Source: Ochrobactrum chromiisoli (GTDB lineage Bacteria > Pseudomonadota > Alphaproteobacteria > Rhizobiales > Rhizobiaceae). From it: a DNA stretch of 64,000 nt. The notes beneath the pieces were generated by a model. The model saw nothing but the letters and a program-made list of their open reading frames with translations, was not told the origin of the DNA and did not search any database. A program made the position numbers and the translations under genes. Shown here piece by piece: positions 14,580-29,519 of this stretch. Position 1 is the stretch's first letter; every line of letters starts with the position of its first letter. Location: NCBI RefSeq assembly GCF_026241335.1, contig NZ_JAPHAV010000001.1:868001-932000 (forward strand). Direction: 5' to 3'.

Positions 14580-15068
14580 TTGAAGACGCAAAAAAATGAC
14601 GCGGACCGCGAGGCGCAGGTCAGGCTGGCTTTTTGCCTGCAAATAAAACATGAAATCACCCCTGCGGATATTGCGCAGGTGATGGGCATCACGGAAAAAA
14701 ACTATCGGATTCGTCTCGGGCGTCTCAATCTGGATGATAAAATTGTCAGCAAGCCGTCTGCCAGTGAAACGGCTTTGCAAAGATTGCAGGCAGAACTCAA
14801 TAAATTAATTGATGGCGATGATTTGCCGGACAAAAGCAAGGCTGAAGCCCTGATGGCACTGGCCAAGGCTGTGAAAACCGTTGGCGAGCTTGTTGCTGAA
14901 ACACAGACTGCTGAAGGGGACACGGTGACATCCGTTGCAAGCCTTCACGAGGTTCGACAGGCGCTTATCCGCATAGACAGGAGAATTGAAGATCTTGCTC
15001 AAAGGCGCGCGCGGGACATCTTGGGGCGCGGACTTGACGCAAAATCAGATATTGGCAGCGGATTGTGA
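14580..15068 (+). CDS. GTA small terminase (g1-like)
   Basis: A 162-residue protein in the position of RcGTA g1, now known as the small terminase that binds the large terminase for headful DNA packaging. The N-terminal part looks like a helix-turn-helix (ITPADIAQVMGITEKNYRIR), the middle is helical, and the C-terminus is charged (RIDRRIEDLAQRRARD). Start is TTG 14580. An ATG at 14573 in another frame ends after eight codons at a run of seven A; loss of one A would fuse it to this frame, so the real or ancestral start may be there. The 3' end overlaps the large terminase gene by 83 bases. Confidence 0.7.
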   Translation: MKTQKNDADREAQVRLAFCLQIKHEITPADIAQVMGITEKNYRIRLGRLNLDDKIVSKPSASETALQRLQAELNKLIDGDDLPDKSKAEALMALAKAVKTVGELVAETQTAEGDTVTSVASLHEVRQALIRIDRRIEDLAQRRARDILGRGLDAKSDIGSGL

Positions 15069-16287
15069 ATGGCTGATCAGGGCGCGTGATGCGCAATTGC
15101 CACCATTTGGTGACTGGCGGACTTGGCTTATTCTGGGCGGACGTGGCTCGGGAAAAACGAGGGCAGGGGCGGAATGGGCATCGGGGATGGCATTGGGATT
15201 GGCACCTTTCTCGCAGAAAGCATGCGGACATATTGCGCTGGTCGGCGAAACTTTCGCCGATGCGCGTGAGGTGATGGTCGATGGCCCTTCCGGCATTTTA
15301 TCGGTGTCGCGCATTTCGCGTCCCCGTTATGAAACAACGCGCAGGCGACTGCTGTGGGACAATGGGGCCGTGGCGTCTCTTTATACATCAGAAGATCCAG
15401 ATGGCTTGCGTGGGCCGCAGTTTGATGCCGCATGGTGCGATGAGCTTGCAAAGTGGAAAAACCCGCAAGCCACATGGGACATGCTGCAATTCGGGCTTCG
15501 ACTGGGAGACTTCCCACGTCAGGTGGTGACGACAACACCGAGGGCAGTGCCATTGTTGAAGGCGCTGATGACAGACAGTTCTGTAACCATGACGCATATG
15601 CGCACCGCGGAGAATGCAGCGCATCTGGCTGTTGGCTTTATGGAGACTATCAATCAACGCTATGCGGGAACCCGCCTTGGACGACAGGAACTCGATGGCG
15701 AATTGATTGAGGAGCGCGCAGGCGCTTTGTGGTCGCGTGAGCGGATCGAACAGTGTTTTGAACCCAAAGCCCCTGAGCTTGAGCGTATTCTGATCGCTGT
15801 TGATCCGCCTGCATCATCCAACAAATCGTCGGATGCCTGCGGAATCGTTGTGGCCGGGATTGATGAAAATGGCTTTGCGCATGTGTTGGCTGATGAAAGC
15901 ATGAATATGGCCAAGCCGCATCAATGGGCGCGGCGTGCAATCGCACTTTATCATTCTTATGAGGCCGATGCGATTTTGGCCGAGGTCAATCAGGGCGGTG
16001 AAATGGTTGCCGCCGTTCTGTCGGCCGAAGATGCCACCGTTCCGGTGCTGATGCGGCATGCATCGCGCGGCAAATGGCTGCGCGCCGAGCCGGTGGCGGC
16101 CCTTTATGAACAGGATCGTGTTCGTCATGCAGGACGCTTTGCAGCACTTGAAGATGAAATGTGTGATTTCGCACCCGAAGGTCTGTCCACCGGGCGCTCG
16201 CCGGACCGTCTTGATGCCCTTGTCTGGGCGCTGACCGAACTCATGCTCGGTCACGACCGAAAGCCGCGTATCAGGCGTTTCGGATAA
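14986..16287 (+). CDS. GTA terminase large subunit (g2)
   Basis: A 433-residue packaging ATPase-nuclease. Walker A is GGRGSGKTRAGAEWA (about 51-65), a Walker-B-like AAWCDELAKW follows at about 150, with the TTTPRAVPLLKAL coupling motif. The nuclease domain shows AVDPPAS, a central EVNQGG and the RSPDRLDALVWALTEL end. It cuts and pumps DNA into the prohead; in GTAs packaging is headful and not sequence-specific. Start TTG 14986 lies inside the g1 frame and gives a family-like N-terminus (LTQNQILAADCEWLIRARD). Followed by the portal gene after 27 bases. Confidence 0.93.
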   Translation: MKILLKGARGTSWGADLTQNQILAADCEWLIRARDAQLPPFGDWRTWLILGGRGSGKTRAGAEWASGMALGLAPFSQKACGHIALVGETFADAREVMVDGPSGILSVSRISRPRYETTRRRLLWDNGAVASLYTSEDPDGLRGPQFDAAWCDELAKWKNPQATWDMLQFGLRLGDFPRQVVTTTPRAVPLLKALMTDSSVTMTHMRTAENAAHLAVGFMETINQRYAGTRLGRQELDGELIEERAGALWSRERIEQCFEPKAPELERILIAVDPPASSNKSSDACGIVVAGIDENGFAHVLADESMNMAKPHQWARRAIALYHSYEADAILAEVNQGGEMVAAVLSAEDATVPVLMRHASRGKWLRAEPVAALYEQDRVRHAGRFAALEDEMCDFAPEGLSTGRSPDRLDALVWALTELMLGHDRKPRIRRFG

Positions 16288-16314
16288 CATTTACACTGAT
16301 TGGAGAGCCGATAT

Positions 16315-17508
16315 ATGGCGTGGAATTTGCCGTGGCGTAGAAATGCCGGGAAGGCAGCCTCATATTCTGATGCGGGACGTGAGCGCAAAAACACGAATGG
16401 CTTTGTGGCCCTTCATATGGAACGCGGACCATCCTGGATAGCGCGGGATTATACATCATTGGCGCGCGAAGGGTTTATGCGTAATCCGGTGGCGCATCGT
16501 TGCGTTCGGCTGATCGCCGAAGCGGCCAGCAATGTGCCGTGGCTGCTTTATGAGGGCACGACCGAGCATGAAGTTCATCCGCTGCTTGATCTTGTGGCGC
16601 GCCCCCAGAGTGGTCTGGATGGAAGCAGTTTTTTTGAACGGCTTTATGGCCATTTGCTGATTTCAGGAAATGCTTATGTGGAGCGTGTTGCTCTTCCAAG
16701 CGGAAACAGCGAGTTGCATTTGCTCAGGCCTGAAAGGGTGACGCTAGAAACATCGAATGATGGATGGCCGCAATCGCTGGTCTATCGTTCAGGCAATACA
16801 AGCCGAGTGGTGTCTCTTTCAGGCGAGGCATCCTCTGGCCTGCATCTGAAACTGTTTCATCCACTGGATGATCATTATGGTTTTCCGCCGCTTGAAGCGG
16901 CTTTAATGGCGCTTGATCTGCATAATGCAGCAGGTGCCTGGAACAAGGCTCTGCTTGATAATTCCGCACGGCCTTCCGGCGCGTTAGTCTACGCACCAAA
17001 AGATGGTGGCAATCTGACGGAAGAGCAGTTTGATCGCCTGAAAACCGAGCTTGAAGAAGGCTACACAGGGGCCTCAGGGGCGGGGCGACCATTGCTTCTT
17101 GAAGGCGGACTGGACTGGAAAGCCATGGGCTATAGCCCGCAGGATATGGATTTTATCGAAGCCAAAAATGGTGCCGCACGCGATATTGCGCTGGCATTTG
17201 GCGTGCCGCCGATGCTGCTCGGTATTCCGGGTGATAACACATATGCAAATTATGCCGAAGCCAATCGCGCCTTCTATCGCCTGACTGTTCTGCCGCTGAT
17301 CAACCGGACTGCCAAGGCCTTTGGCTGTTGGCTGGGCCCACTGTTTGGCGGCGATCTGCGGCTAGAGCATGACATTGACCAGATCGAAGGGTTGTCGCTC
17401 GAACGGGAGTCGCTCTGGCGGCGTGTGTCAGAAGCCTCATTTCTTAGCGATGACGAAAAACGCGATGCGGTTGGCTATCAGCTGCGCGCAGAAAGGAGAG
17501 TGCCATGA
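16315..17508 (+). CDS. GTA portal protein, HK97 family (g3)
   Basis: About 397 residues, the usual HK97 portal size. Recognisable parts are the N-terminal NPVAHRCVRLIAEAASNVPW, the LLISGNAYVERV strand, HPLDDHYGFPPLEAA, DNSARPSGAL, and the GVPPMLLGIPGDNTYANYAEA motif. It forms the dodecameric ring through which DNA enters. ATG 16315 is preceded by GGAG at 16302-16305; the upstream TTG 16300 lacks a site. Its stop overlaps the next start in ATGA. Confidence 0.93.
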   Translation: MAWNLPWRRNAGKAASYSDAGRERKNTNGFVALHMERGPSWIARDYTSLAREGFMRNPVAHRCVRLIAEAASNVPWLLYEGTTEHEVHPLLDLVARPQSGLDGSSFFERLYGHLLISGNAYVERVALPSGNSELHLLRPERVTLETSNDGWPQSLVYRSGNTSRVVSLSGEASSGLHLKLFHPLDDHYGFPPLEAALMALDLHNAAGAWNKALLDNSARPSGALVYAPKDGGNLTEEQFDRLKTELEEGYTGASGAGRPLLLEGGLDWKAMGYSPQDMDFIEAKNGAARDIALAFGVPPMLLGIPGDNTYANYAEANRAFYRLTVLPLINRTAKAFGCWLGPLFGGDLRLEHDIDQIEGLSLERESLWRRVSEASFLSDDEKRDAVGYQLRAERRVP

Positions 17509-17882
17509 GTAATCTGAGTGATACCGTAATGACATCCGATGCAACATTGGTTTGGTTTGCCAAGATTGCCGGAGCGGTTGCCGGTTCTGCCGTGTCACTT
17601 GCCTATATGCTGCCCAAAGGAAAACGCGAAGCTGGCATTCGCTTTGCGGTGGGAATCATCTGCGGTATGATCTTTGGCGGTGCCGCAGGCGTTAAAATAG
17701 CGGAAACACTCTCGCTTGAAGCCCTTCTTGGCCGAGCTGAACTGATGCTGATGGGGTCGACGGCTGCAAGCCTTGCTGCATGGTCGGTGCTTGGCATTCT
17801 GAAGCGCTTTGCCGAGCGGGTGAAGCATGCGCCGCTTCAGGGGCTTATAACGTCTCAAAGGAGCGGGAATGATAAAGCCTGA
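17505..17882 (+). CDS. Small membrane protein of the GTA cluster (DUF6107-like, g3.5 position)
   Basis: A 125-residue protein with two to three membrane segments (about 15-35, 47-65 and 80-97). It sits between portal and protease, where R. capsulatus has the small g3.5, but I cannot say they are homologous; it resembles DUF6107 proteins of rhizobial GTA clusters. Both ends overlap the neighbours (ATGA with the portal, 14 bases with the protease), so it is made with the head proteins. A membrane protein inside the head module is unusual; a role in assembly at the membrane is only a guess. Confidence 0.7.
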   Translation: MSNLSDTVMTSDATLVWFAKIAGAVAGSAVSLAYMLPKGKREAGIRFAVGIICGMIFGGAAGVKIAETLSLEALLGRAELMLMGSTAASLAAWSVLGILKRFAERVKHAPLQGLITSQRSGNDKA

Positions 17883-18549
17883 TCTCAAACTGGAAACCAA
17901 GCGTGCTTCACTTGCGCTCAGTGATGTCGAAATGGACGGGAGTTTTTCCGGCTATGCCAGTATTTTCGGCCTGCCTGATCTTGGCAATGACATTATTGAA
18001 AAAGGTGCTTTTGCAAAGTCGCTGTCGACCCGGAGATCGTCGGGTGTGCGGATGCTCTGGCAGCATGATGCGGCCGAGCCGATCGGTGTATGGACAGATA
18101 TTCGCGAGGATGCGCGTGGTCTTTATGTGGAAGGCAGGCTTGCCAAGGGTGTGGCGCGCGCACGCGAAGCACTGGAGCTGATGCGGGCAGGCGGGCTTGA
18201 TGGACTGTCCATCGGCTTTCGCACCGTGAAGGCGCGCAAGGATGCACGCACGGGCCTGCGCCATATTGTTGAAGCGGATCTCTGGGAAATCTCGGTGGTG
18301 ACGTTTCCGATGCTGCCACAGGCGCGCATCAACAATCTGAAAGCGGATTTGCCAACAGTCAGAGAATTTGAACGTTGGCTCACGCGGGATGCGGGGTTAA
18401 GCCGTTCCGCTGCACGTCTGGTGATAGCCAAAGGCTATTCAGCACTTGCAGCCTTACAAAGCCGGAATGAGCGGGACGCTCTCAACTCGGGCGATACAGG
18501 CCTTGCACAGCGTATGCGTGCCGCCTGCAAGATGATGTCTTTTAACTAA
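17869..18549 (+). CDS. GTA prohead protease, HK97 family (g4)
   Basis: A 226-residue U35-type maturation protease. The family core is visible: FSGYASIFGLPDLGNDIIEKGAF (in parts: GYASIFG, DLGNDII), RMLWQHD with the catalytic His, GLSIGFRT with the catalytic Ser, and EISVVTFPMLPQA. The last 60 residues are an extra helical tail. It cleaves the capsid precursor and itself during head maturation. The gene overlaps the membrane protein gene by 14 bases and lies 12 bases before the capsid gene. Confidence 0.93.
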   Translation: MIKPDLKLETKRASLALSDVEMDGSFSGYASIFGLPDLGNDIIEKGAFAKSLSTRRSSGVRMLWQHDAAEPIGVWTDIREDARGLYVEGRLAKGVARAREALELMRAGGLDGLSIGFRTVKARKDARTGLRHIVEADLWEISVVTFPMLPQARINNLKADLPTVREFERWLTRDAGLSRSAARLVIAKGYSALAALQSRNERDALNSGDTGLAQRMRAACKMMSFN

Positions 18550-18561
18550 ATCAGGATCAAA

Positions 18562-19836
18562 ATGAACAACACTCATAAAGTCCAGCTCGAAACCAAGAGC
18601 GTGGAAACAAAGGCGCTTGGCGCCAATCTGGGCAATGATGGCGATGTGTCGGAAGCCTTCGATGAATTCATGGCCGCTTTTTCGGCCTTTCGTGAAGCCA
18701 ATGATGAGCGGCTGAAAAAAGTCGAAAAGAATACGAGTGTCGATGTGCTGCTGCGCGAAAAGGTTGATCGTATCAACCACGCGCTCGACGAGCAGAAACA
18801 GGCGCTTGACCAATTTGTTCTGAAAACTGCACGTCCGCAACTGGGCAAATGTCCGGTTGTCGAAAACCGCGAACACAAGCAGGCTTTCGATGACTATGTA
18901 CGCCGTGGCGATGAACAGGCGATGCGCGGTATTGAGCAGAAAGCGCATTCTTACGCCTCTGGGCCGGATGGCGGTTATCTTGTGCCAGCAGAGCTTGAAA
19001 CCGAAATTGGCCGCAGGCTGGCTGTGTTGTCGCCGATCCGTGGCATTTCAAGCGTGCGCCAAGTTTCTGGTGCTGTGCTCAAAAAGCCGTTTTCGGTGAG
19101 CGGCCCGGCAACAGGCTGGGTCGGTGAAACTGATGCTCGCCCACAGACAGCTTCGGCCAAACTGGCAGAACTGCAGTTTCCAACTATGGAAATCTACGCG
19201 ATGCCGGCGGCAACATCTTCGCTTCTCGATGATGCTGCCGTTAATGTCGAGCAGTGGATCGCCGAGGAAGTGGAAGCAGCCTTTGCCGAGCAGGAAGGCG
19301 AGGCCTTTATCAGCGGCAATGGCGTCAACAAGCCAACGGGCTTTTTGAGCTATGATACGGTCGAAGACACAAGCTGGGAATGGGGCAAGATCGGTCATAT
19401 CGAAACGGGTGTTGCAGGTGCGCTGCCAGCAGCCGATCCGTCTGACAAGCTGATCGAACTTATCTATGCGCTGAAAGCCGGATATCGTCAGAATGCCAGT
19501 TTCGTTATGAATCGCAAGACTCAGAGCGTGCTGCGCAAGCTCAAAGATGCAGACGGAAATTACCTCTGGCAGCCGCCCTCGGCTGTTGGCGAGAAAGCGT
19601 CACTGATGGGCTTTGGTCTGGTTGAGGCCGAGCATATGCCGGATATTGCAGCCGACGAAACGCCAATCGCTTTTGGTGATTTTGAACGGGGGTATCTGGT
19701 TGTGGACCGTATTGGCGTTCGCGTTTTGCGCGACCCATACTCTGCCAAACCATATGTGCTTTTTTATACCACCAAGCGCGTTGGCGGTGGTGTTCAGGAT
19801 TTTGATGCGATCAAGCTTCTGAAGTTTGGAGCCTGA
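18562..19836 (+). CDS. GTA major capsid protein, HK97 fold (g5)
   Basis: A 424-residue HK97-type capsid precursor. The first 100 or so residues are charged and coiled-coil-like (the scaffolding delta domain, to be cut by the protease), then the fold begins near GGYLVPAELETEIGRRL. Other family marks are the SLLDDAAVNVEQWIAEEV helix, EGEAFISGNGVNKPTGFL and the C-terminal YFYTT/DFDAIKLLKF-type end. It forms the GTA head. A 196-base gap with hairpins and a repeat half follows, the largest break inside the cluster. Confidence 0.95.
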   Translation: MNNTHKVQLETKSVETKALGANLGNDGDVSEAFDEFMAAFSAFREANDERLKKVEKNTSVDVLLREKVDRINHALDEQKQALDQFVLKTARPQLGKCPVVENREHKQAFDDYVRRGDEQAMRGIEQKAHSYASGPDGGYLVPAELETEIGRRLAVLSPIRGISSVRQVSGAVLKKPFSVSGPATGWVGETDARPQTASAKLAELQFPTMEIYAMPAATSSLLDDAAVNVEQWIAEEVEAAFAEQEGEAFISGNGVNKPTGFLSYDTVEDTSWEWGKIGHIETGVAGALPAADPSDKLIELIYALKAGYRQNASFVMNRKTQSVLRKLKDADGNYLWQPPSAVGEKASLMGFGLVEAEHMPDIAADETPIAFGDFERGYLVVDRIGVRVLRDPYSAKPYVLFYTTKRVGGGVQDFDAIKLLKFGA

Positions 19837-20032
19837 TATTTGCATCAACAAGCATCGTATCCGAAAGCGGAATCATGTTTTCGGGATGCGCATTTCGCAG
19901 CGGCTTTGCTGCATTTCTGCTTAACGACCCTGCCGGTTTTGGCAGCTAGATTCAATTCGCAAACACGTTGAATCTTTTTCTGGAATGCCATTCGTAACTA
20001 TCTGATTTGAGAGTTATTTTAAGGGGAAATAA
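19837..20032 (+). other. Gap between g5 and g6 with hairpins
   Basis: No gene. It carries a degenerate left half of the dispersed palindromic repeat (19846-19896), short hairpins GCAGC..GCTGC (about 19896-19911) and CTGCC..GGCAG (about 19929-19944), and a TTGAAT that might be part of an internal promoter. AAGGGG before the g6 start is a strong ribosome site. Confidence 0.5.
19846..19896. repeat. Degenerate left half of dispersed repeat inside the GTA cluster
   Basis: Reverse complement reads CGCATCCCGAAAACATGATT, then CCGCTTTCGGATACGATGC, which aligns with the left half of the repeat at 40297-40401 (CGCATCCCGAAAAGTGTGAA and following). Confidence 0.45.
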
Positions 20033-20593
20033 ATGACAATGTTTCTTGTCACGCCGCCGGTACTTGAACCGGTGACGGTCGCGGATGCGCGTGCATTTTT
20101 AAGAATTTCAACGGACAGCGAAGATGACATTCTTCGCCGTATTATCAAGACAGCACGTGAACTGGTCAAGGCTGATACAGGGCTGGCTCTTATCGACCAA
20201 ACTTGGCGGTTGCGCGTTGATCGCTGGCCGCGTTCGGGTCGGTTGGCTCTTTTCAAGTATCCGGTAAAGGCTGTGACCGCTGTCGTCGCATATCGCTGCG
20301 ACGGAACTGCAATCAGCATGGAGCCCGAAGAATTCATGCTCCAGCATGGACGCCGCCCCCAGCGTGTTTACATGGCACAATATCCTGATGCGCAGTCGTT
20401 TTGCGGTCTTGAAGTCGACTTCATTGCGGGCTTTGGCGAAACGGGTGTCGAGGTGCCTGACGCCCTCAAGCAAGCCATACTCACGTTGAGCGCGCATCTC
20501 TACGAGAACCGCGCTGGTCTTGATGGCGCAACATCAGAGCTTCCGCCGATGGTTGGGCAGATGGTCGATAGTTGGCGGCGCATATCTCTATGA
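20033..20593 (+). CDS. GTA head-tail connector/adaptor (g6)
   Basis: A 186-residue protein of the phage connector family (gp6/PhiE125 gp8 type). The N-terminal helical part VTVADARAFLRISTDSEDD and IIKTARELVKADTG are the typical marks; a beta-rich middle carries the YPVKAVTAVVAY strand. It forms the ring below the portal. The start ATG 20033 follows AAGGGGAAATAA. The next gene starts within its stop (ATGA at 20590). Confidence 0.9.
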   Translation: MTMFLVTPPVLEPVTVADARAFLRISTDSEDDILRRIIKTARELVKADTGLALIDQTWRLRVDRWPRSGRLALFKYPVKAVTAVVAYRCDGTAISMEPEEFMLQHGRRPQRVYMAQYPDAQSFCGLEVDFIAGFGETGVEVPDALKQAILTLSAHLYENRAGLDGATSELPPMVGQMVDSWRRISL

Positions 20594-20928
20594 ACAACGT
20601 CCTGTTTATTGATCCAGGCCAGCTCACCGTAGAGCTGGCTCTGGAAGCCATGCATCCGATTGCCGACGGCATGGGCGGCTATCGCGAAACATGGGTGGAA
20701 GTATCAACCGTTTGGGGGCGCATTGAACCAATAACCGCCAGTCAACGCGATTTCGGCACCCGGCCACGCCCGGAAATAACCCATCGTATCTTGGTGCGCC
20801 ATCGTGAGGATATTTCATCCGACAAGCGCTTCCGAAAAGGGGGGCGTGTTTTCTTGCTGCGTTCCGTACGCGATCCGGATGAAAGCGGACGCTATCTGAT
20901 TTGTCTGGCAGTGGAGGAAGGGCGGTGA
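20590..20928 (+). CDS. GTA head-tail stopper/adaptor (g7)
   Basis: A 112-residue phage head-closure protein (SPP1 gp16-like family). The family pattern GGYRETWVEVSTVWGRIEPI, then HRILVRHREDI and DKRFRKGGRVFLLRSVRDPDESGR (in parts: FLLRSVRDPDE), is clear. It closes the head after packaging. Start chosen at ATG 20590, overlapping the g6 stop; the frame extends to 20572 inside g6. Length matches the family. Confidence 0.88.
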   Translation: MNNVLFIDPGQLTVELALEAMHPIADGMGGYRETWVEVSTVWGRIEPITASQRDFGTRPRPEITHRILVRHREDISSDKRFRKGGRVFLLRSVRDPDESGRYLICLAVEEGR

Positions 20929-21101
20929 ACGTAACCATGAAATTAACGTTTGATGGCCTCGTGCGTGCGCTTCGGTTCAAACAGATAGCGCTGCGCGAGG
21001 AAATTGCCACCTGGGGATCTGGCAGTCGAGGCGACAAAGAAAAGCTGATTGGGGAACACAATGAAGAGCAGCGCGGCAGCATTGCAGAAAGCACTTTATG
21101 A
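20925..21101 (+). CDS. Very small unknown protein between g7 and g8
   Basis: A frame of 58 codons that begins at GTG 20925, overlapping the g7 stop in GTGA, or at ATG 20937 (MKLTFDGLVRALRF). It is basic and helical, with no known domain. I have a vague memory of similar LTFDGLVRALR proteins in other rhizobial GTA clusters. It overlaps the start of g8 (21061) by 41 bases, which argues for caution. Not present in R. capsulatus as far as I know. Confidence 0.5.
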   Translation: MNVTMKLTFDGLVRALRFKQIALREEIATWGSGSRGDKEKLIGEHNEEQRGSIAESTL

Positions 21102-21471
21102 GGCCTTGAAGAACGACGGCGAACTCATTGAAACGCTTGGTGGAGAACATGTTTATGACCATGTCCCACCAAAAACCGCGTTCCCTTATATCACGCTTGG
21201 CGAGACACTGACGAAGGATTGGAGCACGGCGAGCGAGCTGGGCGGGGAGCATTTTCTCAACATTCAGATATGGGCGCGCGAGTCAGGCCGCAAACGCGTT
21301 TTGGAGATTGCCGGGCGCATCGCTACGCGTCTTGATGAACAACCGCTCGCAGTCAACGGCCATCGCATCGTCAATCTTATGTTGACCGAAGTGCTAGCCC
21401 GTAACACCGACGGGTTCGGGAGTTATCTCGGCACCATGCGCTATCGGGCCGTAACAGAACCCGTAATTTGA
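21061..21471 (+). CDS. GTA tail terminator, DUF3168 (g8)
   Basis: A 136-residue DUF3168 protein: LQKALYEALKNDGELIETLG, VYDHVPPKTAFPYITLGE, and the DEQPLAVNGHRIVNLML strand. It caps the head-proximal end of the tail tube. ATG 21061 has GGGGA six bases upstream; the TTG at 21049 is unlikely. The stop overlaps the upstream extension of the next frame only. Confidence 0.9.
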   Translation: MKSSAAALQKALYEALKNDGELIETLGGEHVYDHVPPKTAFPYITLGETLTKDWSTASELGGEHFLNIQIWARESGRKRVLEIAGRIATRLDEQPLAVNGHRIVNLMLTEVLARNTDGFGSYLGTMRYRAVTEPVI

Positions 21472-21485
21472 TTCAGGAGCCAAAT

Positions 21486-21899
21486 ATGACAGCTCAACGC
21501 GGCAAGGACATCTTGCTGAAAATTGCGCATGGCGCAGGGCAGTTTGAAACCTGTGCCGGCCTGCGCACCAAACGCATTGCGTTCAATGCGGAAACGGTCG
21601 ATGTGACTGACGCCGACGCAGCCGGGCGCTGGCGACAGTTGCTGGCCGGAAGCGGCGTGCAGCGGGCCTCTGTAAGCGGGTCTGGCATATTCAAAGATGC
21701 AACGTCTGATGCTCTGATACGCAGCGTATTCTTTGATGGTGAAATTCGCAACTGGCAGATTTTACTTCCTGACTTTGGAACAATCACAGGGCCGTTTCAG
21801 ATCGTGGCTCTTGAATATGGCGGCAATCACGATGCGGAAATGACCTTTGAAATTGCGTTGGAATCCGCCGGACTGATCGCCTTCGGAGAAGCGCTATGA
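21486..21899 (+). CDS. GTA major tail (tube) protein (g9)
   Basis: A 137-residue tail tube protein of the TP901-1-like family: MTAQRGKDILLKI, RIAFNAETVDVTDADAAGRWRQLL (in parts: TVDVTDADAAGRW), SGSGIFKD, and EMTFEIALESAG near the end. It forms the tail tube between head and baseplate. Start chosen at ATG 21486 after AGGAGCC. The stop overlaps the g10 start (ATGATG). Confidence 0.92.
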   Translation: MTAQRGKDILLKIAHGAGQFETCAGLRTKRIAFNAETVDVTDADAAGRWRQLLAGSGVQRASVSGSGIFKDATSDALIRSVFFDGEIRNWQILLPDFGTITGPFQIVALEYGGNHDAEMTFEIALESAGLIAFGEAL

Positions 21900-22234
21900 T
21901 GGTCAATCGTCATCGTGGCGAGGTTGCGGCAAAACTGGATGGTCGTGACTGGACACTCTGCCTGACGCTCGGTGCGCTGGCGCAACTCGAATCTGCTTTT
22001 GAGGCAGACAATCTTTCTGACCTGATCATGCGCTTTTCCGGCGGTAAGCTGTCTGCTTTCGATATGCAGCGCATCATCTGTGCGGGCCTTCATGGTGGTG
22101 GGCATAATGTACCGTTTGAAGACGTGGCCGAAATGCGCGCCGATGGCGGTGCCAGCGGCTATGCCCGCATCGTTTCAGCACTGCTGACGGCGACCTTCGG
22201 AACGGAAGAAAGCGATTCTCCTTCAAACCCTTGA
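21896..22234 (+). CDS. GTA gp10 family protein
   Basis: A 112-residue protein of the gene transfer agent gp10 family, likely a tail assembly chaperone: NRHRGEVAAKLDGRDWTLCL, LGALAQLESAFEADNLSDL and IICAGLHGGGH are the family marks. Overlaps g9 by four bases and shares its last codon region with the TTG start of g10.1. In phages the chaperones of this position help the tape measure guide tail length. Confidence 0.88.
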   Translation: MMVNRHRGEVAAKLDGRDWTLCLTLGALAQLESAFEADNLSDLIMRFSGGKLSAFDMQRIICAGLHGGGHNVPFEDVAEMRADGGASGYARIVSALLTATFGTEESDSPSNP

Positions 22235-22446
22235 GTGCCGCAGTTGAATCAAGTCCTTCACGTCAGCCTTTTCCCTGGAAAGAGGTGATGCGCGCTGGCT
22301 TTGGTTTGCTGCGGCTTTCTTCAAAAGACTTCTGGGCGATGACCCCACGCGAACTCAGTGTCGTTCTCGGGCCTGTCTCGCAGAGCAAAAATGCTCCTTC
22401 GCGCGCGACTCTCGACGCGCTGATGCATGCCTTTCCCGATAGGTGA
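22231..22446 (+). CDS. GTA tail assembly chaperone-like protein (g10.1)
   Basis: A 71-residue protein in the place of R. capsulatus g10.1 (TAC-type). FPWKEVMRAGFGLLRLSSKDFWAMTPREL (in parts: FPWKEVMRAGFGLLRLS, DFWAMTPREL) is the family signature. The start is TTG 22231, overlapping the g10 stop in TTGA. It lies directly before the tape measure gene, as chaperone genes do. Confidence 0.85.
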   Translation: MSAAVESSPSRQPFPWKEVMRAGFGLLRLSSKDFWAMTPRELSVVLGPVSQSKNAPSRATLDALMHAFPDR

Positions 22447-22452
22447 TTTATC

Positions 22453-23001
22453 ATGACGGATGAAACCGTAACTGTTTCCGTCGAGGCGGATACAAGCGCA
22501 TTTGATCGCGCATTGACGGACCTCGAAAAACGCTCATCAAGCTTCGGCTCAAGCCTGACGACTGCACTCAAAAGTGCAATCGTTTCCGGCAAGGGGCTTG
22601 ACGATGTGCTGCGCGGCCTTGCCAGCAGTCTGGCAGGTTCGGCACTTTCGGCCGGGCTTCAGCCATTGCAAAGTCTTGGCTCATCGCTGATGTCGGGCGT
22701 ACTTGGCGGTATTCGTGGCATCATGCCGTTTGCGAAAGGCGGTGTGGTTTCAAGCCCGACCTATTTCGGCATGGGCAATGGGGCGCTGGGGCTGACGGGG
22801 GAGGCCGGTGCAGAGGCGATTTTGCCACTCGCGCGCGGTGCTGATGGCAGACTTGGCGTTGCCACGGGTGGCACAGGCAGTAAGCCGGTGCAGGTGGTCT
22901 TTAATATGACGTCGCCCGATGTATCTTCTTTCCGCAAGTCCGAGGCACAGCTTTCCACCATGCTTGCAGGTGCAGTACGCCGTGGCGCACGGAGGATGTG
23001 A
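22453..23001 (+). CDS. GTA tail tape measure protein (g11)
   Basis: A 182-residue tape measure protein. Short length fits the short tails of GTAs. The N-terminus is helical (VSVEADTSAFDRALTDLEKR), the middle hydrophobic and Gly-rich (about 45-95), and the C-terminal part holds FAKGGVVSSPTYF and GLTGEAGAEAILPLAR, a common end of tape measure proteins. It sets tail length and may form a channel at injection. Confidence 0.9.
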   Translation: MTDETVTVSVEADTSAFDRALTDLEKRSSSFGSSLTTALKSAIVSGKGLDDVLRGLASSLAGSALSAGLQPLQSLGSSLMSGVLGGIRGIMPFAKGGVVSSPTYFGMGNGALGLTGEAGAEAILPLARGADGRLGVATGGTGSKPVQVVFNMTSPDVSSFRKSEAQLSTMLAGAVRRGARRM

Positions 23002-23002
23002 G

Positions 23003-23632
23003 ATGGAAGCCTTTCACGATGTGCGTTTTCCGCTCAGCGTTTCGTTTGGTGCAACCGGTGGGCCGGAATGGCGCAATGAAATTGTCACGCTCACATCAGG
23101 TATGGAAAAGCGGAATGCGCGCTGGGCGCATTCACGCCGACACTTTGATGCGGGGACGGGGCTGCGCTCGCTTGATGATCTGAAAACCGTATTGGCGTTT
23201 TTTGAGGCGCGGCGCGGGTCGCTTCATACGTTTCGGTTCCGCGACCCGCTCGATTTTTCTTCCGCAACCGGCTGTGCTGCGCCCTCGCATCTCGATCAGG
23301 TGATTGGAACGGGCGATGGGGCCACCACACGCTTTCAACTCGTCAAACATTACGAGACATATGATCGCCCCATCCGGCGGCCCGTTGCAGGCTCTGTGGT
23401 GGTTGGTGTGGATGGCATAAGGCTGACTGAAACTGAGGCTTTCACGCTTTAGCCCGCCACTGGCATTGTCGCCTTCACATCCGGTTATGTGCCGTCTTCA
23501 GGCCAGCGGGTCAGTGCTGGTTTCCTGTTCGATGTGCCGGTACGTTTCGATACGGATCGTCTTTCGGCCAGCATCGCCTCGTTTCAGGCGGGTGAAATCC
23601 CGTCTATTCCCATCATTGAGGTCAAGGCATGA
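23003..23632 (+). pseudogene. GTA distal tail protein, DUF2460 (g12), interrupted by an in-frame TAG
   Basis: The frame 23003-23632 encodes a full-length 209-residue DUF2460 protein except for one TAG at 23450-23452 (codon 150). Before it: FPLSVSFGATGGPEWRNEIV, RWAHSRRHFDAG, FRFRDPLDF; after it in the same frame: PATGIVAFTSGY, FLFDVPVRFDTDRL, AGEIPSIPIIEVKA, the usual family ending. The final stop overlaps the next start (ATGA). There is no frameshift and no other damage, so this is either a recent nonsense mutation (CAG to TAG would be one step), a sequencing error, or a suppressed amber. Without readthrough a 149-residue protein lacking the end would be made, and tails would probably fail. 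Confidence 0.9.
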
Positions 23633-24504
23633 TCCCTATTCCGACCGAACTTGAATCACATTTAAAGGGTGAAGTGACAAGCCATTGCTTTGCATGGCTT
23701 ATCAGGCGTTCTGACACTGTCGTTCTCGGTTTCACCGATCATGATTCTGCTTTGCCTTTGGACGGTGTTTTATGTGAACCGCTCACGGGATTGAACAGCA
23801 GCGAAGCAACCACAATGCTTGGTCTCTCTATCGCCGGAGGCGAGGTCGAGGGTGCACTCTCATCGCAGCGCATCAGCGATCGCGATATTGAACTTGGCCG
23901 CTACGATGGTGCCATCGTTGAAAGCTATCTGGTCAACTGGAATGCTCCAGATCAGCACATGCTGTTGCGGCGCTGGATAGCGGGCACCATCAGCCGCTCC
24001 GATGGACGCTTCGTAATGGAGTTGAAAGGCGCCGCTGCAGCGTTCGATGCCGTTTGTGGGCGCCGGATTATGCGCCAGTGTAATGCAGTGCTAGGCGATA
24101 ACCGTTGCGGCGTGAATGGCAATGATCCGCGATTTTCTGCCGTTGGTTCAATCCTGCATGCCGATGGTGTGATGCTTGATGTTGCCGGGCTTGAGGGCTT
24201 TGGCAGTGGCTGGTTCACGCAAGGACTGCTCACATGGACGAGTGGTGAAAATGTCGGTCGGTCTGTGCGTGTTCTTATGCACAGTGGCACTAATCTAAAC
24301 CTAACCGATCAGCCGGTCCTGCCTGTCACAGCAGGCGATGGTTTTCGTATCATTGCTGGCTGCGACAAGAGTTTTGCCACCTGTAAGGCGAAATTCGAAA
24401 ACGGCATTAACTTCCGAGGTTTTCCGCATCTTCCCGGAAACGATGCAGCTTTTGCCTATGTCAGCGGCGGCAATGAGTATGACGGGAGCGCACTGGTGCC
24501 ATGA
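23629..24504 (+). CDS. GTA baseplate hub protein, DUF2163 (g13)
   Basis: A 291-residue DUF2163 protein. Family marks are HCFAWLIRRSDTVVLGFTDHD (in parts: FAWLIRRSD, LGFTDHD), VEGALSSQRISDRDIELGRYDGA (in parts: ISDRDIELGRYDGA) and the C-terminal FRGFPHLPGNDAAF. Four Cys in RQC, DNRC, AGCDKSF and ATCKAKF match the iron-sulfur ligands reported for the RcGTA hub. It forms the tail hub. Starts in ATGA with the g12 stop and ends in ATGA with the g14 start. Confidence 0.92.
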   Translation: MIPIPTELESHLKGEVTSHCFAWLIRRSDTVVLGFTDHDSALPLDGVLCEPLTGLNSSEATTMLGLSIAGGEVEGALSSQRISDRDIELGRYDGAIVESYLVNWNAPDQHMLLRRWIAGTISRSDGRFVMELKGAAAAFDAVCGRRIMRQCNAVLGDNRCGVNGNDPRFSAVGSILHADGVMLDVAGLEGFGSGWFTQGLLTWTSGENVGRSVRVLMHSGTNLNLTDQPVLPVTAGDGFRIIAGCDKSFATCKAKFENGINFRGFPHLPGNDAAFAYVSGGNEYDGSALVP

Positions 24505-24935
24505 CAATCGCAGACAAAGTTTTGACCGAAGCTGAAAGCTGGATTGGTACGCCCTATCGGCATGGCGCTTCAACGCGCGGCATAAGCTGCGATTGCCTCG
24601 GACTGGTGCGGGGTGTTTGGCATGCGCTTTATGGTGAGGAGCCAGAAGATCCCGGTGCCTATGCGCCGGACTGGGCGGAGGCCGCATCTGGCGATCCGTT
24701 GCTGGAGGCGGCCAACCGGCATATGCAGCCTCGTTCCAGCTATAATCCTGAGCCGGGTGATCTGTTGATCTTTCGCTGGCGTGCCGATGTTGCGGCCAAG
24801 CATCTCGGCATTATGACCAATCAAAACCGTTTCATCCATGCCTATGAGGGGCATCGGGTAATGGCCTCTGCGCTGGTGCCGCAATGGCGGAAACGTATAG
24901 CCGGAATTTTCATCTTTCCCGAACCAAAAGGTTAA
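24501..24935 (+). CDS. GTA tail NlpC/P60 peptidase (g14)
   Basis: A 144-residue NlpC/P60 cysteine peptidase. The catalytic Cys is in SCDCLGLVRGVW, and the His in AKHLGIMT; the start ITPYRHG-like element is IGTPYRHGAS. It is the tail peptidoglycan hydrolase that helps the particle cross the recipient cell wall. Overlaps g13 by four bases and lies three bases before the tip gene. Confidence 0.93.
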   Translation: MTIADKVLTEAESWIGTPYRHGASTRGISCDCLGLVRGVWHALYGEEPEDPGAYAPDWAEAASGDPLLEAANRHMQPRSSYNPEPGDLLIFRWRADVAAKHLGIMTNQNRFIHAYEGHRVMASALVPQWRKRIAGIFIFPEPKG

Positions 24936-24938
24936 GCA

Positions 24939-27900
24939 ATGGCGACTGTTGTTCTGCAGGCCGTGGGCGCTGCTGTCGGAGGCATTTTTGGTCCTGTGGG
25001 TGCAGCTATCGGCGCAGGTCTTGGTGCCATGGGCGGATATGCCATCGACACGGCAATCATCAATTCTACCCGTCATATGGAAGGGGCACGCCTCAATAGC
25101 GGCCGCGTGGCCACGGCAGAAGAGGGCGCTGCATTGCCATTTGTCTATGGGACAGCACGGCTTACGGGCACGCTGATCTGGGCAACCCGTTTTGAGGAAA
25201 AGAAAACCACCGAGCGCCAGGGCGGCAAGGGCGGTCCGAAAGTCACCAGCTACAGTTATTTCGGCAATGCAGCCTATGCAGTTGCCGAAGGTGAAATTGC
25301 TACTATTCGTCGTGTATGGGCCGATGGGCAGGAGCTTGATCTTACCGAGATCGAAATGCGCATTTATCACGGCACCGATACCCAGCAGCCGGACCCGCTG
25401 ATTGAGGCAAAGCAGGGCACGGGCAATGCACCCGCTTATCGCGGTACGGCCTATGTGGTTTTCGAACGCATTCCGCTTGATACTTACGGAAACCGATTTC
25501 CGCAGTTTCAGTTTGAGGTTCTGCGACCGGTTGGAGAACTGGCACAGAATCTTCGTGCCATCGCGCTTATTCCGGGGTCAACTGAATTTGGTCTTTCGCC
25601 TGATCCGGTTACGGATCGGGTCTTCTTCGGTGAACGCCGCACACTCAACCGCAATGCAAAGCGCGGTCGTAGCGACTGGACGGTGGCCATGGATGAACTG
25701 CAAGCGCTGTGCCCTCAATTGCAACACGTGGCTATCGTTCTGCCGTGGTTTGGCGATGATCTGCGTGCAGCATCATGTAAAATTCGCCCCGGTGTCACGC
25801 ATCAGGCGTCGCTGTTATCAAGCCTGACATGGAAGGTCGAGAATGTCACGCGCGCGCAGGCGCATTTGATTTCGACGAGCGGCAAGGGCGCGGCCTATGG
25901 CGGAACGCCATCCGATCAGAGCGTGATCAGTGCCATCCGCGATGCGAAAGCGCGCGGTCTTAAAGTCACATTATATCCTTTTATCATGATGGATATTGCG
26001 GCTGATAATCAGTTGCCGTCTCCCTATGGTGGAATTGGGCAATCGGTCTATCCATGGCGCGGACGTATCACCTGCCATCCGGCAATCGGTGAAACAGGTT
26101 CGCCAGATACAACGCCTGAGGCGGGAAGTCAGGTTGAGGCTTTCGTCAATGGAACATGGGGTTACAGACGTTTTTTGAATCATTGTGCAAATCTTGCGGT
26201 ACGGGCCGGTGGAGTCGATGCGTTTTTGCTGGGATCTGAATTGCGCGGCCTGACAAGCATTCGCGATGCTCGAGAGAACTTTCCATTTGTCACGCATCTT
26301 TGTGCGCTCGCCGGTGAAATGCGTGTGAAGCTTGGGGCGGGTTGCCGCATCAGTTATGGCGCAGACTGGACCGAATATTTTGGTTATCAGGCGCAGGACG
26401 GAACCGGCGATTTTTATTTTAACCTCGACCCGCTCTGGTCGCATCCGGCAATAGATGCCGTTGGCATCGACAATTACATGCCGCTTTCCGACTGGCGAGA
26501 TAGTGATCTTCGCGGCGGCAATCCCGATGGTTTCGAGGGGCCCTATGATCTTGATGGACTGCTACAGAGTGTTGAGGCACGTGAAGGTTTCGACTGGTAT
26601 TATGCCAACAGTCAAGACCGGGATGAGCGCAAGCGCACACGCATCACTGACGGGCTTGCGGGGAAGCCATGGGTCTATCGTTACAAAGACACTCGTGCAT
26701 GGTGGAGCAATCCGCATCATAACCGGATTGATGGTGAGGAGGTTGCAGCACCGACCGGTTGGGTGCCGCAGTCAAAGCCCATTTGGTTTACGGAACTCGG
26801 ATGTCCGGCAGTCGATAAGGGACCGAACCAGCCCAATGTATTTCCCGATCCAAAATCGTCGGAAAATGCCACGCCCTATTTTTCGAATGGCTCGCGCTCC
26901 GATATCGCAATGGATCGCTTCCTGCGCGCGCATTATTACTATTGGCCTCAAAATAATCCGGTCTCGCCGGTCTATGGCGGGTCAATGCTGGATATGGACC
27001 GCATTTATCTCTGGGCCTGGGATACGAGGCCTTTCCCGGAATTTCCGCTGAAAGGGGATGTGTGGGGTGATACGCCAAACTGGCGGCTGGGTCATTGGTT
27101 GAACGGCCGGCTGAGTGGCGTTGCCCTTGATGAACTGATTGCCGCAATCCTTGAGGACTTTGATTTGCCGCAAGCTGATTGTTCCGGTGCAGATGGACAT
27201 TTGACCGGCTTCGTCATTTCAGAACCCTCCACAGCGCGTGGCGTGCTTGAACCTTTGGTGAATGTATTTGGCGTTCATGGTTTTGAGCAGGCGGGAACAT
27301 TCGTCTTCCGCAGCATTGGACGTACCGCACAAACGCTGGATGTTGCGGACCTGTTGGTCGAGCCGCATGATGGTGATGCGCTGACCTCTGTTCTTGAAGA
27401 CCAGGGCGATTTGCCCAGCGTGGCGGAGCTTTATTGCAACGATCCTCTGCGTGATTTTCAGGTCGTGGGGGCATCCGTGCGCCGCGATGCGGGACAAGGG
27501 ACAGAGAGTCTCAGCCTTTCAGATTCGATGGAAACAGGACAGGCAATGGCCCTGGCTGAAGGCTGGATGGCACGTCGCTATGCGGAGCGGCGCACAGCAA
27601 GCTTTTCATTGCCGTGGTCGGCAGCAGCGCTTCATGTCGGGGACCGGGTACGGATCGATATTTTGGGCGGTGAGCGTGATTATGTGGTGTCATCGCTCGA
27701 AGATGGTGAGGTGCGAGCGGTCAAGGCGGTGGCGTTAGCACCCAATGTCGCCTTTGCCGACAGAGGCGAAACACCACAGCTTTCGCCGGGCGGGTCAGTT
27801 TCTGATATGAAGCCGATTTTCCATCTGATTGATGTGCCGCTCTGGCCGGGTGCGGAAGATCCCGCTGGTCAGTTTCGCATTGCTTGCCATGCCAGACCAT

Positions 27901-28745
27901 GGCGTGGCGTGGCAATTTATGCTTCGCCTTCCGATGATGGTTTTGCCGAGCGTAATATGATTGGGGAGCGCGCGGTCATGGGAGAACTCACCGCGGCACT
28001 TGGATCAGGTCCGAGTGGACGTCTGATCGAAGCGCAGACCATAGACGTGGTGCTTTATTCGGGTGAACTGCAATCAAAGCCGATCGCACAAATTCTCAAT
28101 GGTGCCAATATGGCAATGATGAAATCTCCCGATGGAAAATGGGAGGTGGTTCAGTTTCTTGAGGCCGAGGAAGTTGGACAGAATCAATGGCGATTATCGC
28201 GGCTTTTGCGCGGCCAGCTTGGCACAGAAGCGGCAAGCCGCATCGAAAAACCCATCGGAGCGCCATTTGTGCTCTTTGATGGCGGCGTACAAAGCATTGG
28301 ATTGCAGGCAAATGAAATCGGGCTTGAGCTCAATTGGCGGATAGGCGCGGCAGGCAAAACCTTCTCGGATGAGTATTTTGATACTGTGAAAGTCATCGGT
28401 GGTCTGAACGCTTTGAGACCTTTAAGCCCTGTTCATCTCAGGGCAGAACGGCTTGGTAATGGTGATCTGTCGCTGCATTGGATAAGGCGCGGGCGTGTAG
28501 ATGCCGATAGCTGGATGGGCGCAGATATTCCGCTGGGGGAGGACGCAGAAGCCTATCGGATTGAAATCTGGCAGGGGGAAACGCTTGTCCGAAGTTTAGA
28601 GGTGCAGACGCCATCATGGATCTATCCGAATGCTGAACGAATGGCTGAGGTTGGAGCCAACAGTTTTGAGCTGCGGATTGCGATGTTGAGCGCAAGAATA
28701 GGCGCGGGCGATTTTGCCTCAATCGAAATTCAGAATGTTTTGTGA
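24939..28745 (+). CDS. GTA tail tip/host specificity protein (g15, GTA TIM-barrel)
   Basis: A 1268-residue protein, the length expected for RcGTA g15. An N-terminal Gly/Ala-rich hydrophobic stretch (about 1-45) is followed by a phage-tail hub-like region (GARLNSGRVATAEEGAALPFVYGTARLTG, in parts: EEGAALPFVYGTARL), a TIM-barrel glycosidase-like domain (about 400-760; FLLGSELRGLTS, ISYGADWTEYFGY, WFTELGCPAVDKG) and beta-rich C-terminal domains. It forms the baseplate tip and is thought to bind or cut cell-surface glycans. No interruption is visible. Confidence 0.93.
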   Translation: MATVVLQAVGAAVGGIFGPVGAAIGAGLGAMGGYAIDTAIINSTRHMEGARLNSGRVATAEEGAALPFVYGTARLTGTLIWATRFEEKKTTERQGGKGGPKVTSYSYFGNAAYAVAEGEIATIRRVWADGQELDLTEIEMRIYHGTDTQQPDPLIEAKQGTGNAPAYRGTAYVVFERIPLDTYGNRFPQFQFEVLRPVGELAQNLRAIALIPGSTEFGLSPDPVTDRVFFGERRTLNRNAKRGRSDWTVAMDELQALCPQLQHVAIVLPWFGDDLRAASCKIRPGVTHQASLLSSLTWKVENVTRAQAHLISTSGKGAAYGGTPSDQSVISAIRDAKARGLKVTLYPFIMMDIAADNQLPSPYGGIGQSVYPWRGRITCHPAIGETGSPDTTPEAGSQVEAFVNGTWGYRRFLNHCANLAVRAGGVDAFLLGSELRGLTSIRDARENFPFVTHLCALAGEMRVKLGAGCRISYGADWTEYFGYQAQDGTGDFYFNLDPLWSHPAIDAVGIDNYMPLSDWRDSDLRGGNPDGFEGPYDLDGLLQSVEAREGFDWYYANSQDRDERKRTRITDGLAGKPWVYRYKDTRAWWSNPHHNRIDGEEVAAPTGWVPQSKPIWFTELGCPAVDKGPNQPNVFPDPKSSENATPYFSNGSRSDIAMDRFLRAHYYYWPQNNPVSPVYGGSMLDMDRIYLWAWDTRPFPEFPLKGDVWGDTPNWRLGHWLNGRLSGVALDELIAAILEDFDLPQADCSGADGHLTGFVISEPSTARGVLEPLVNVFGVHGFEQAGTFVFRSIGRTAQTLDVADLLVEPHDGDALTSVLEDQGDLPSVAELYCNDPLRDFQVVGASVRRDAGQGTESLSLSDSMETGQAMALAEGWMARRYAERRTASFSLPWSAAALHVGDRVRIDILGGERDYVVSSLEDGEVRAVKAVALAPNVAFADRGETPQLSPGGSVSDMKPIFHLIDVPLWPGAEDPAGQFRIACHARPWRGVAIYASPSDDGFAERNMIGERAVMGELTAALGSGPSGRLIEAQTIDVVLYSGELQSKPIAQILNGANMAMMKSPDGKWEVVQFLEAEEVGQNQWRLSRLLRGQLGTEAASRIEKPIGAPFVLFDGGVQSIGLQANEIGLELNWRIGAAGKTFSDEYFDTVKVIGGLNALRPLSPVHLRAERLGNGDLSLHWIRRGRVDADSWMGADIPLGEDAEAYRIEIWQGETLVRSLEVQTPSWIYPNAERMAEVGANSFELRIAMLSARIGAGDFASIEIQNVL

Positions 28746-28761
28746 AATGAAAGGACACGTC

Positions 28762-28965
28762 ATGAGTGAAGACAAGCCTTGGTATCTTTCTCGCACTATC
28801 TGGGCCGGGCTGGTCGCGCTTTTTCTGTCGCTGGCTGGCGCTTTTGGCTTCATCAGCGATGCGGTGGATCATGGTGCTTTGACTGATGTAATGCTGCAAC
28901 TTGCCACTGCAATTGCCGGTCTTATTACCATTTTTGGAAGGTTAGGGGCAACTTCGCGCATTTCA
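28762..28965 (+). CDS. Small two-helix membrane protein after g15, holin-like
   Basis: A 68-codon gene with two membrane segments (TIWAGLVALFLSLAGAFGF and MLQLATAIAGLITIFGRL) and a short charged N-terminus (MSEDKPWYLSR). The ATG 28762 follows AAAGGACACG; the longer frame starts inside g15. The stop is the TAA at 28966-28968. Size and topology suit a holin, which would release GTA particles together with an endolysin. No endolysin gene is adjacent. R. capsulatus keeps its lysis genes elsewhere, so this would be a local variant; function is inferred from topology and place only. Confidence 0.6.
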
Positions 28966-29018
28966 TAATTTCATAAACCGTGATAGCAAAGTTCCGAAGA
29001 TCGCCTGATACCGGAATA

Positions 29019-29047
29019 TTGACGGATGTTTCGGAAGATATTATGCG
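29019..29047 (+). promoter_or_regulatory. Candidate promoter for feuNPQ
   Basis: TTGACG at 29019-29024, 17 bases, then TATGCG (weak). It lies in the 200-base gap after the GTA cluster, 120 bases upstream of the feuN-like start. A TATATAAGGGA closer to the start is mostly ribosome site context. Confidence 0.3.
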
Positions 29048-29168
29048 TAAAAACAATAGTTTAGAATGGCTTCGGTCTGAGGCTGTTTTATGGGAAAAAT
29101 TCCTTTGCGTTGATCATCTGCGTGTATCGTTCATGCATCGTTCAGATGAAAGGCGCTATATAAGGGAC

Positions 29169-29468: not shown

Positions 29469-29519
29469 CTTACTTTGCTAGAGAATATAGGCAAGGCAAC
29501 ATAGGCAAGGGAATATGGC

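What the first reader, a model, noticed from the sequence alone, without database searches (positions are those of the whole stretch)
14580..28965. Near-complete RcGTA-like gene transfer agent in a Brucellaceae-type genome
All fifteen RcGTA-type structural genes are there in order with coupled starts, plus local additions (a membrane protein in the g3.5 place, a tiny gene between g7 and g8, and a holin-like gene at the end). No integrase, repressor or replication genes. RcGTA-like clusters are known in many alphaproteobacteria, but activity in this group is, to my knowledge, little tested.
Basis: partly seen in the sequence, partly recalled or inferred. Interest (0 to 1): 0.75.

Follow-up and report, generated by a model that had tools for sequence, protein, structure and literature searches.

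The report
Broken gene transfer agent in Brucella
A Brucella-group bacterium carries the gene set for a virus-like DNA-shuttling particle and the switch genes thought to control it, but one tail gene is cut by a stop codon, so this lineage probably no longer makes working particles.

Summary
The finding is real: window 14580-28965 holds an RcGTA-type gene transfer agent (GTA) cluster, g1 to g15 in order, in a genome of the genus Brucella. GTA clusters in Brucella are in print, so the kind is known. (1) g12, the distal tail gene, has an in-frame TAG at 23450-23452; of 35 genus genomes searched only this one has a stop in an otherwise complete g12, and none of 50 tRNA genes found reads UAG. Working particles are therefore unlikely. 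Lesions in g2, g9 or g15 occur in 3 of 24 related clusters, and 9 further genomes have eroded clusters. (2) A GafA-type activator pair lies 10 kb upstream (2910-4141). (3) A promoter element at 14379-14470 is seen in all 34 genus genomes aligned and in 52 of 80 loci of the named collection. In 7 of 9 eroded genomes the g3.5-place gene (DUF6107, three helices) is still full length or nearly so, with dN/dS 0.12-0.30 in the six measured. Best reading: a once-selected GTA, recently inactivated.

The parts
1789..2217 (+). mucR-type regulator beside the activator pair
   Evidence: Pfam ROS_MUCR E 2e-49
2910..3362 (+). DnaA-type HTH protein: first half of the split gafA-type activator
   Evidence: Pfam Bac_DnaA_C E 1.8e-13; arrangement as described for Hyphomicrobiales in PMC9638019 section 10
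3344..4141 (+). DUF6456 protein: second half of the split gafA-type activator
   Evidence: Pfam DUF6456 E 1.3e-43; the only DUF6456 match in the genome
14379..14470 (+). conserved GTA promoter: a TAGGAAAA-type box next to -35 TTGAC, a weaker copy upstream that some genomes lack, a CGTNACG element and a -10 region
   Evidence: box and -35 visible in all 34 rows printed; 52 of 80 loci within 3 mismatches; one exact match in the genome
14580..15068 (+). g1 (small terminase place), TTG start
   Evidence: position and conservation only; no family match
15001..16287 (+). g2 large terminase (start uncertain)
   Evidence: Terminase_6N and Terminase_6C
16315..17508 (+). g3 portal
   Evidence: Phage_portal E 1.2e-83
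17505..17882 (+). g3.5-place membrane protein DUF6107, three predicted helices
   Evidence: DUF6107 E 2.5e-32; AlphaFold2 model; kept in 7 of 9 eroded loci
17869..18549 (+). g4 prohead protease
   Evidence: Peptidase_S78
18562..19836 (+). g5 major capsid protein
   Evidence: Phage_capsid E 1.5e-91
20033..20593 (+). g6 connector
   Evidence: Phage_connect_1
20587..20928 (+). g7 head completion
   Evidence: Phage_HCP
20937..21101 (+). tiny ORF between g7 and g8, coding status doubtful
   Evidence: found mainly in near relatives; dN/dS 0.15-0.35
21061..21471 (+). g8 tail completion
   Evidence: Tail_completion_gp17
21483..21899 (+). g9 tail tube
   Evidence: Phage_tail_2
21896..22234 (+). g10
   Evidence: GTA-gp10 family PF11836
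22231..22446 (+). g10.1
   Evidence: rcc01693 family TIGR02216 over cut-off
22453..23001 (+). g11 tape measure
   Evidence: RcGTA_tape, below cut-off
23003..23452 (+). g12 distal tail protein, first 149 codons up to an in-frame TAG at 23450-23452
   Evidence: TIGR02217 positions 1-148
23453..23632 (+). g12 remainder behind the TAG
   Evidence: TIGR02217 positions 152-209
23629..24504 (+). g13 hub
   Evidence: Phage_phiJL001_Gp84_N and Phage_BR0599
24501..24935 (+). g14 tail peptidase
   Evidence: NLPC_P60
24939..28745 (+). g15 megatron
   Evidence: NF048004 1659 bits, cut-off 800
28762..28968 (+). holin-like gene after g15 (68 aa from the likely start)
   Evidence: phrog_34682 holin E 2.4e-6; start from relatives

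Best explanation
The cluster is the chromosomal head-tail operon of an RcGTA-type gene transfer agent, inherited with the host chromosome and probably switched on by the GafA-type pair at 2910-4141 acting on the promoter at 14379-14470. In this genome it has recently been inactivated by a nonsense codon in g12. A 149-residue distal tail protein would lack about its last 60 residues, including the C-terminus that in RcGTA helps bind the hub and megatron, so heads and tails might form but particles with a baseplate should not. The lineage would then be a non-producer. Shown: gene content, order, the stop codon, no UAG-reading tRNA among the 50 found, purifying selection, the shared locus, promoter conservation. 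Inferred: control by the GafA-type pair, loss of particles, non-producer status.
For: Family matches and order. TAG in g12 in the window's genome only: 26 of 35 genus genomes have g12 over the cut-off; one other (G011, 69% complete) is fragmented by frameshifts and one TGA. Both g12 pieces still match their parts of the family and show dN/dS of 0.06-0.12 against six relatives, so the lesion looks recent. No tRNA with anticodon CTA among the 50 tRNA genes found. [quoted passage not shown] Lesions in other genes in 3 of 24 relatives with a cluster: B. pecoris g2, B. pseudogrignonensis g9, B. rhizosphaerae g15, on separate branches of a quick tree. The DUF6456 and DnaA-HTH pair beside mucR fits the published Hyphomicrobiales gafA arrangement. 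Promoter element with one exact match in the genome, and conserved.
Against: No experiment. A single base call could be an assembly error; reads were not available. The tRNA list is not complete: no tRNA-Ile is in it. Lesions in structural genes (3 genomes, 101,609 codons) against flanking genes (0, 82,277 codons) are too few to differ significantly. GafA-type control is by homology; binding was not tested. The CGTNACG element is only a partial inverted repeat in this genus, and another centre scores slightly higher there (3.50 against 3.20 of 5). Tail spikes, head spikes and endolysin elsewhere in the genome were not searched.
Confidence: 0.75

Rival explanations
1. The GTA still works: the stop is a sequencing or assembly error, is read through at some level, or the truncated distal tail protein suffices.
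For: The other structural genes in the window are open. Both g12 pieces keep dN/dS as low as g13-g15. The assembly is a draft in 52 contigs, and the tRNA list lacks tRNA-Ile, so a few tRNA genes are missing.
Against: No UAG-reading tRNA among the 50 found. The lost part holds the C-terminus that helps bind the baseplate in RcGTA. Lesions in other GTA genes recur in the genus.
Confidence: 0.17
2. A prophage or phage remnant that still moves between hosts.
For: The genes are of phage descent; the genome has two other phage-like TerL/MCP loci.
Against: No integrase, repressor or replication family hit in the cluster; no tRNA in the window and no flanking direct repeat. The flanking penicillin-binding protein gene was found at the cluster place in 33 of 34 other genus genomes fetched; in the other one (G025) it was not in the stretch held. 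Eroded genomes carry GTA remnants rather than an empty site. The nearest phage records read as bacterial contigs.
Confidence: 0.03
3. The head-tail genes were turned to another use, such as a tailocin-like killer.
For: Structural genes are under purifying selection.
Against: TerL, portal, protease and capsid genes are intact in the window and under selection like that on the tail genes, which a headless killer would not need.
Confidence: 0.02

Closest known systems
RcGTA, the gene transfer agent of Rhodobacter capsulatus
   Same: Order g1-g15; head-tail cluster without phage replication genes; activator outside the cluster
   Different: DUF6107 three-helix protein in the g3.5 place, whereas Rcc01685 is described as a single 75-residue helix (PMC7296036, passages); a holin-like gene at the 3' end; gafA split in two; g12 cut by a stop
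CcGTA of Caulobacter crescentus with GafYZ control
   Same: Activator in two genes; one promoter for the main cluster, with an inverted repeat between -35 and -10 there and a CGTNACG element in that place here (PMC11150451, passages)
   Different: The element here is only partly palindromic; the boxes next to -35 are not the published GafY element; no long repeats like its terminator were found in 13900-29700
GTA-like clusters of Brucella suis and B. abortus
   Same: Same genus and kind; B. suis 1330 served as the Rhizobiales reference for GTA genes (PMC9836097, passages), and clusters in B. abortus and B. suis are mentioned in PMC12946183 (passage)
   Different: Those genomes were not compared here; among the genomes searched the g12 stop is seen only in this one
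Pseudogenized GTA clusters read as possible cheaters
   Same: PMC10883770 (passages) reports recurrent pseudogenization and loss in Alphaproteobacteria and suggests cheater lineages
   Different: The passages seen do not mention a promoter plus g3.5-place gene kept after loss; the rest of the paper was not read

Membership tests
RcGTA-type gene transfer agents | Homologues of the RcGTA head-tail genes in order | tested here: met
   g2-g15 by Pfam/NCBIfam; g11 below its cut-off
RcGTA-type gene transfer agents | g1 small terminase subunit | tested here: inconclusive
   No match in three libraries; position only
RcGTA-type gene transfer agents | No integration, replication or repressor genes; no attachment sites | tested here: met
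   Cluster genes scanned; no tRNA; no flanking repeat
RcGTA-type gene transfer agents | Fixed chromosomal place, inherited with the host | tested here: met
   Same flanks in genus genomes with whole and with eroded clusters
RcGTA-type gene transfer agents | Structural genes under purifying selection | tested here: met
   dN/dS 0.02-0.15 for g2-g15 except g10.1 (0.12-0.35), window against six relatives; two g9 comparisons were saturated
RcGTA-type gene transfer agents | GafA-type activator in the genome | tested here: met
   DUF6456 plus DnaA-HTH pair; homology only
RcGTA-type gene transfer agents | All structural genes intact, as a producer needs | tested here: not met
   TAG in g12. This lowers the claim of a working GTA, not descent from one
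RcGTA-type gene transfer agents | Particles with random host DNA | not testable with these tools
   No wet-lab data
RcGTA-type gene transfer agents | Accessory loci: tail spike, GhsA/B, endolysin | not tested
   Not searched
Active temperate prophage | Integrase and attachment sites | tested here: not met
   None found in the cluster or at its edges

The most novel reading that the evidence does not exclude
When the GTA is lost in this genus, a small module often survives: the GTA promoter followed by the g3.5-place gene (DUF6107, a three-helix, possibly holin-like membrane protein), with the GafA-type pair still present where it could be checked. This gene would then serve non-producers, for example by guarding the membrane against GTA-triggered lysis or by a role in receiving DNA, rather than building the particle.
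Probability: 0.35. Interest if true: 0.68.

Novelty: new member of a known kind. Interest (0 to 1): 0.45.

Why it matters
A GTA cluster broken in one structural gene, with its activator pair, promoter and other genes still under normal constraint, is what a fresh non-producer lineage should look like, and the genus offers a graded series from whole to nearly gone. That makes the question of why GTA production persists despite cheaters open to comparison. The conserved promoter gives a sequence handle on GTA control in much of the family, and the survival of DUF6107 points to one GTA-linked gene that may be worth keeping without the particle.

Tried and rejected
Prophage reading: rejected for lack of integrase hits, tRNA, flanking repeats and empty sites. 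Phage relatives: the two closest records, MW091529 and MW462191, read as bacterial contigs with GTA clusters. Programmed readthrough of g12: rejected, since no other complete g12 in the genus sample has a stop. Suppressor tRNA: none among the 50 tRNA genes found, though the list lacks tRNA-Ile and so is not complete. Lesion excess in GTA genes over flanking genes: too few to be significant. DUF6107 as a general cell gene: rejected, 163 of 168 carriers in the family sample also match the megatron, and at order level 1 of 150 genomes, the window's own, has it. Solved structures for DUF6107: none. Fold search of DUF6107 against viral models: 0 matches at E 0.001 or better; 21 of the 50 listed weak matches are named holins, so holin-like is a lead only, on a model of mean pLDDT 74. 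Generic promoter scan: at background and did not list the conserved promoter.

Dropped rows and discarded results: the control ORF o8407 was given in a wrong frame and its stops are discarded; the sufE query there had a false N-terminal extension, so its stops at residues 6 and 13 are discarded. The lesion survey counts only stops between 5% and 95% of a gene and clear frameshifts, and leaves out G011, whose flanking genes are frameshifted too. G001 and G007 were left out of the g3.5 dN/dS pairs: the first is a frameshifted assembly, the second has a truncated copy. G025 was left out of the tree for lack of flanking genes. In one search the HK and DUF2336 values of G035 and G021 come from other or partial genes, since their upstream stretch was not fetched, and are not used. 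A further frameshift in g15 lies outside the genus, in Pseudochrobactrum kiredjianiae.

Against the novel reading: in G036, G035 and G021 both dN and dS of g3.5 are higher than in the flanking genes (G036 against G013: dS 0.98 against 0.21-0.44), so recombination may have moved this locus and the number of independent losses is uncertain; these three and G001 share one architecture. An open frame alone is weak evidence (simulated chance of no stop 0.11-0.73 per genome). The promoter is also less conserved in some eroded pairs (0.09-0.16 differences per site in pairs with G036, G035 or G021, against 0.04-0.07 among G013, G022 and G032). Three loci from other genera (L176, L177, L178) were picked because they have DUF6107 without megatron, so they are no independent test; L176 and L177 keep the promoter element exactly, L178 and its intact relative L180 do not show it. 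In the family sample most genomes without a megatron match lack DUF6107 too (48 with neither, 5 with DUF6107 alone).
Full report
What is there. The window is G000:C11:868001-932000 of a 4.65 Mb draft genome in 52 contigs. The nearest named species by capsid protein is Brucella thiophenivorans at 94%; the genus as the tools use it also takes in Ochrobactrum and Falsochrobactrum records. The region 14580-28965 codes for g1 to g15 in RcGTA order on the + strand. Pfam and NCBIfam name g2-g10.1 and g13-g15 over their cut-offs, and each piece of the split g12 over the Pfam cut-off; g11 is an RcGTA tape measure protein below its cut-off; g1 has no family match. The g3.5 place holds DUF6107. A holin-like gene follows g15.

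The distal tail gene starts at 23003 and has TAG at 23450-23452. The two pieces match TIGR02217 at 1-148 and 152-209. In a search of 35 genus genomes, the window's own included, 26 have the family over its cut-off; the window's genome is the only one with a stop inside a complete copy, G011 is fragmented, and 9 have none. The 50 tRNA matches of the genome were read with ARAGORN and none has anticodon CTA; no tRNA-Ile is among them, so the draft lacks a few. In RcGTA hub and megatron bind, among other parts, the C-terminal Arg209 of this protein (PMC7296036, passages), so a 149-residue form should not carry a baseplate. This last step is inference.

How old is the lesion. Between the window and six relatives g2-g15 except g10.1 have dN/dS of 0.02-0.15, in the range of the flanking cellular genes; g10.1 is 0.12-0.35, g1 0.22-0.32, the tiny ORF 0.15-0.35. 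The two g12 pieces are at 0.06-0.12. There is no sign of long relaxation, so the stop looks recent, and the cluster was under selection until then.

The genus shows decay in many states. Clusters of 25 further genus genomes were fetched. Leaving out G011, 24 were surveyed: 3 have a lesion in a structural gene (G013 g2, G016 g9, G019 g15; 101,609 codons, 1 gene-genome pair missing), against none in 11 flanking genes (82,277 codons, 15 pairs missing). By shared sequence these three are B. pecoris, B. pseudogrignonensis and B. rhizosphaerae. The nine genomes without g12 have remnants of the cluster beside the same penicillin-binding protein gene, with differing deletions; one (G007) could be followed only to the end of its contig. 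On a quick tree of 34 genomes from flanking genes, five of whose forks are weak, the eroded state needs at least 5 changes, and the four single lesions lie on separate branches. Recurrent GTA loss and the idea of cheaters are in print (PMC10883770, passages).

Control genes. A DUF6456 protein, the only one in the genome, and a DnaA-type HTH protein lie at 2910-4141, next to mucR. This is the split gafA arrangement described for Hyphomicrobiales, Brucellaceae included (PMC9638019, section 10 read). A sufE-like gene, named by eye and not by a family search, lies downstream behind an amidase gene. The pair was found in 26 of 28 upstream stretches, among them the eroded G015, G010 and G036; in G026 and G030 it was not in the stretch fetched.

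The promoter. Aligning the space in front of the penicillin-binding protein gene and g1 shows one conserved block, visible in all 34 rows printed, the nine eroded genomes and the window included (the search there was permissive, and G025 could not be aligned). Its core TAGGAAAAWARTCCTTGAC has one exact match in the genome, and one more with 3 mismatches, against 3 matches for a reversed control. Of the 80 loci from the named collection, Brucella included, 52 have it within 3 mismatches, against 0 of 80 shuffled loci; at least five of the other 28 (L048, L050, L053, L089, L090) start too near g5 to hold it. Between -35 and -10 lies CGTNACG, a full five-pair inverted repeat in 5 of 34 loci outside the Brucella group; within the group another centre scores slightly higher. 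C. crescentus has an inverted repeat in that place as a putative GafZ element (PMC11150451, passages). One search of the paper library for promoter or motif work in Hyphomicrobiales listed 2 papers, which I did not read for this point, so I do not claim that the element is unpublished.

DUF6107. In the nine eroded genus genomes it is full length by coverage and without stops in 7 (G001, at 119 of 125 residues, is a noisy assembly), truncated in G007 and absent in G030; of the other genes g1 is full in 2, g4 and g6 in 1 each, the holin-like gene in 4, the rest in none. Pairwise dN/dS among six eroded genomes is 0.12-0.30 (15 pairs), against 0.01-0.15 for 21 pairs of genomes with a cluster. Selection is thus weaker but not absent; recombination clouds the picture in three of the six. 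In the wider family it goes with the GTA: of 247 genomes 163 have both, 5 only DUF6107 (two of these matches are weak), 31 only a megatron match, 48 neither. The AlphaFold2 model has three long helices at mean pLDDT 74; fold matches are weak and 21 of the 50 listed are named holins. The library search for DUF6107 found 0 papers.

Verdict. This is a member of a known kind, the RcGTA-type GTA, in a genus where such clusters are already reported (PMC9836097 passages; PMC12946183 passage). What is new here is the broken state, its place in a series of losses, the linked activator pair, the conserved promoter, and the survival of DUF6107 behind it.

Noticed in passing
MW091529.1 (L102): GenBank 'Bacteriophage sp. 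103231' from sewage reads as a bacterial GTA cluster with flank; its two 'antibiotic efflux protein' labels lie, by position, where the response regulator and the next ORF lie in the window.
   Followed up: partly
MW462191.1 (L103): A 103 kb 'Bacteriophage sp.' record reads as a bacterial contig: GTA cluster beside penicillin-binding, fimbrial and cytochrome genes.
   Followed up: partly
L183-L262 (IMG/VR): 422 candidate stretches in the viral collection encode a DUF6107 relative; many of the 80 kept lie on contigs of 14-15 kb, the size of a GTA cluster, so GTAs appear to be filed as viruses.
   Followed up: no
L043: A contig titled Bacillus subtilis SK6B4 carries a GTA cluster whose identities to the window run like those of the Pseudochrobactrum loci L044-L047, which suggests a mislabelled or mixed assembly.
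   Followed up: no
G000:C22:250277-255204 and G000:C11:1081617-1085132: Two further phage-like TerL/MCP loci in the same genome, the first close to tRNA genes.
   Followed up: no
window 29520-31594: A response regulator gene and the next ORF lie just downstream of the GTA in genus genomes and, at lower identity, in five loci from other genera.
   Followed up: partly
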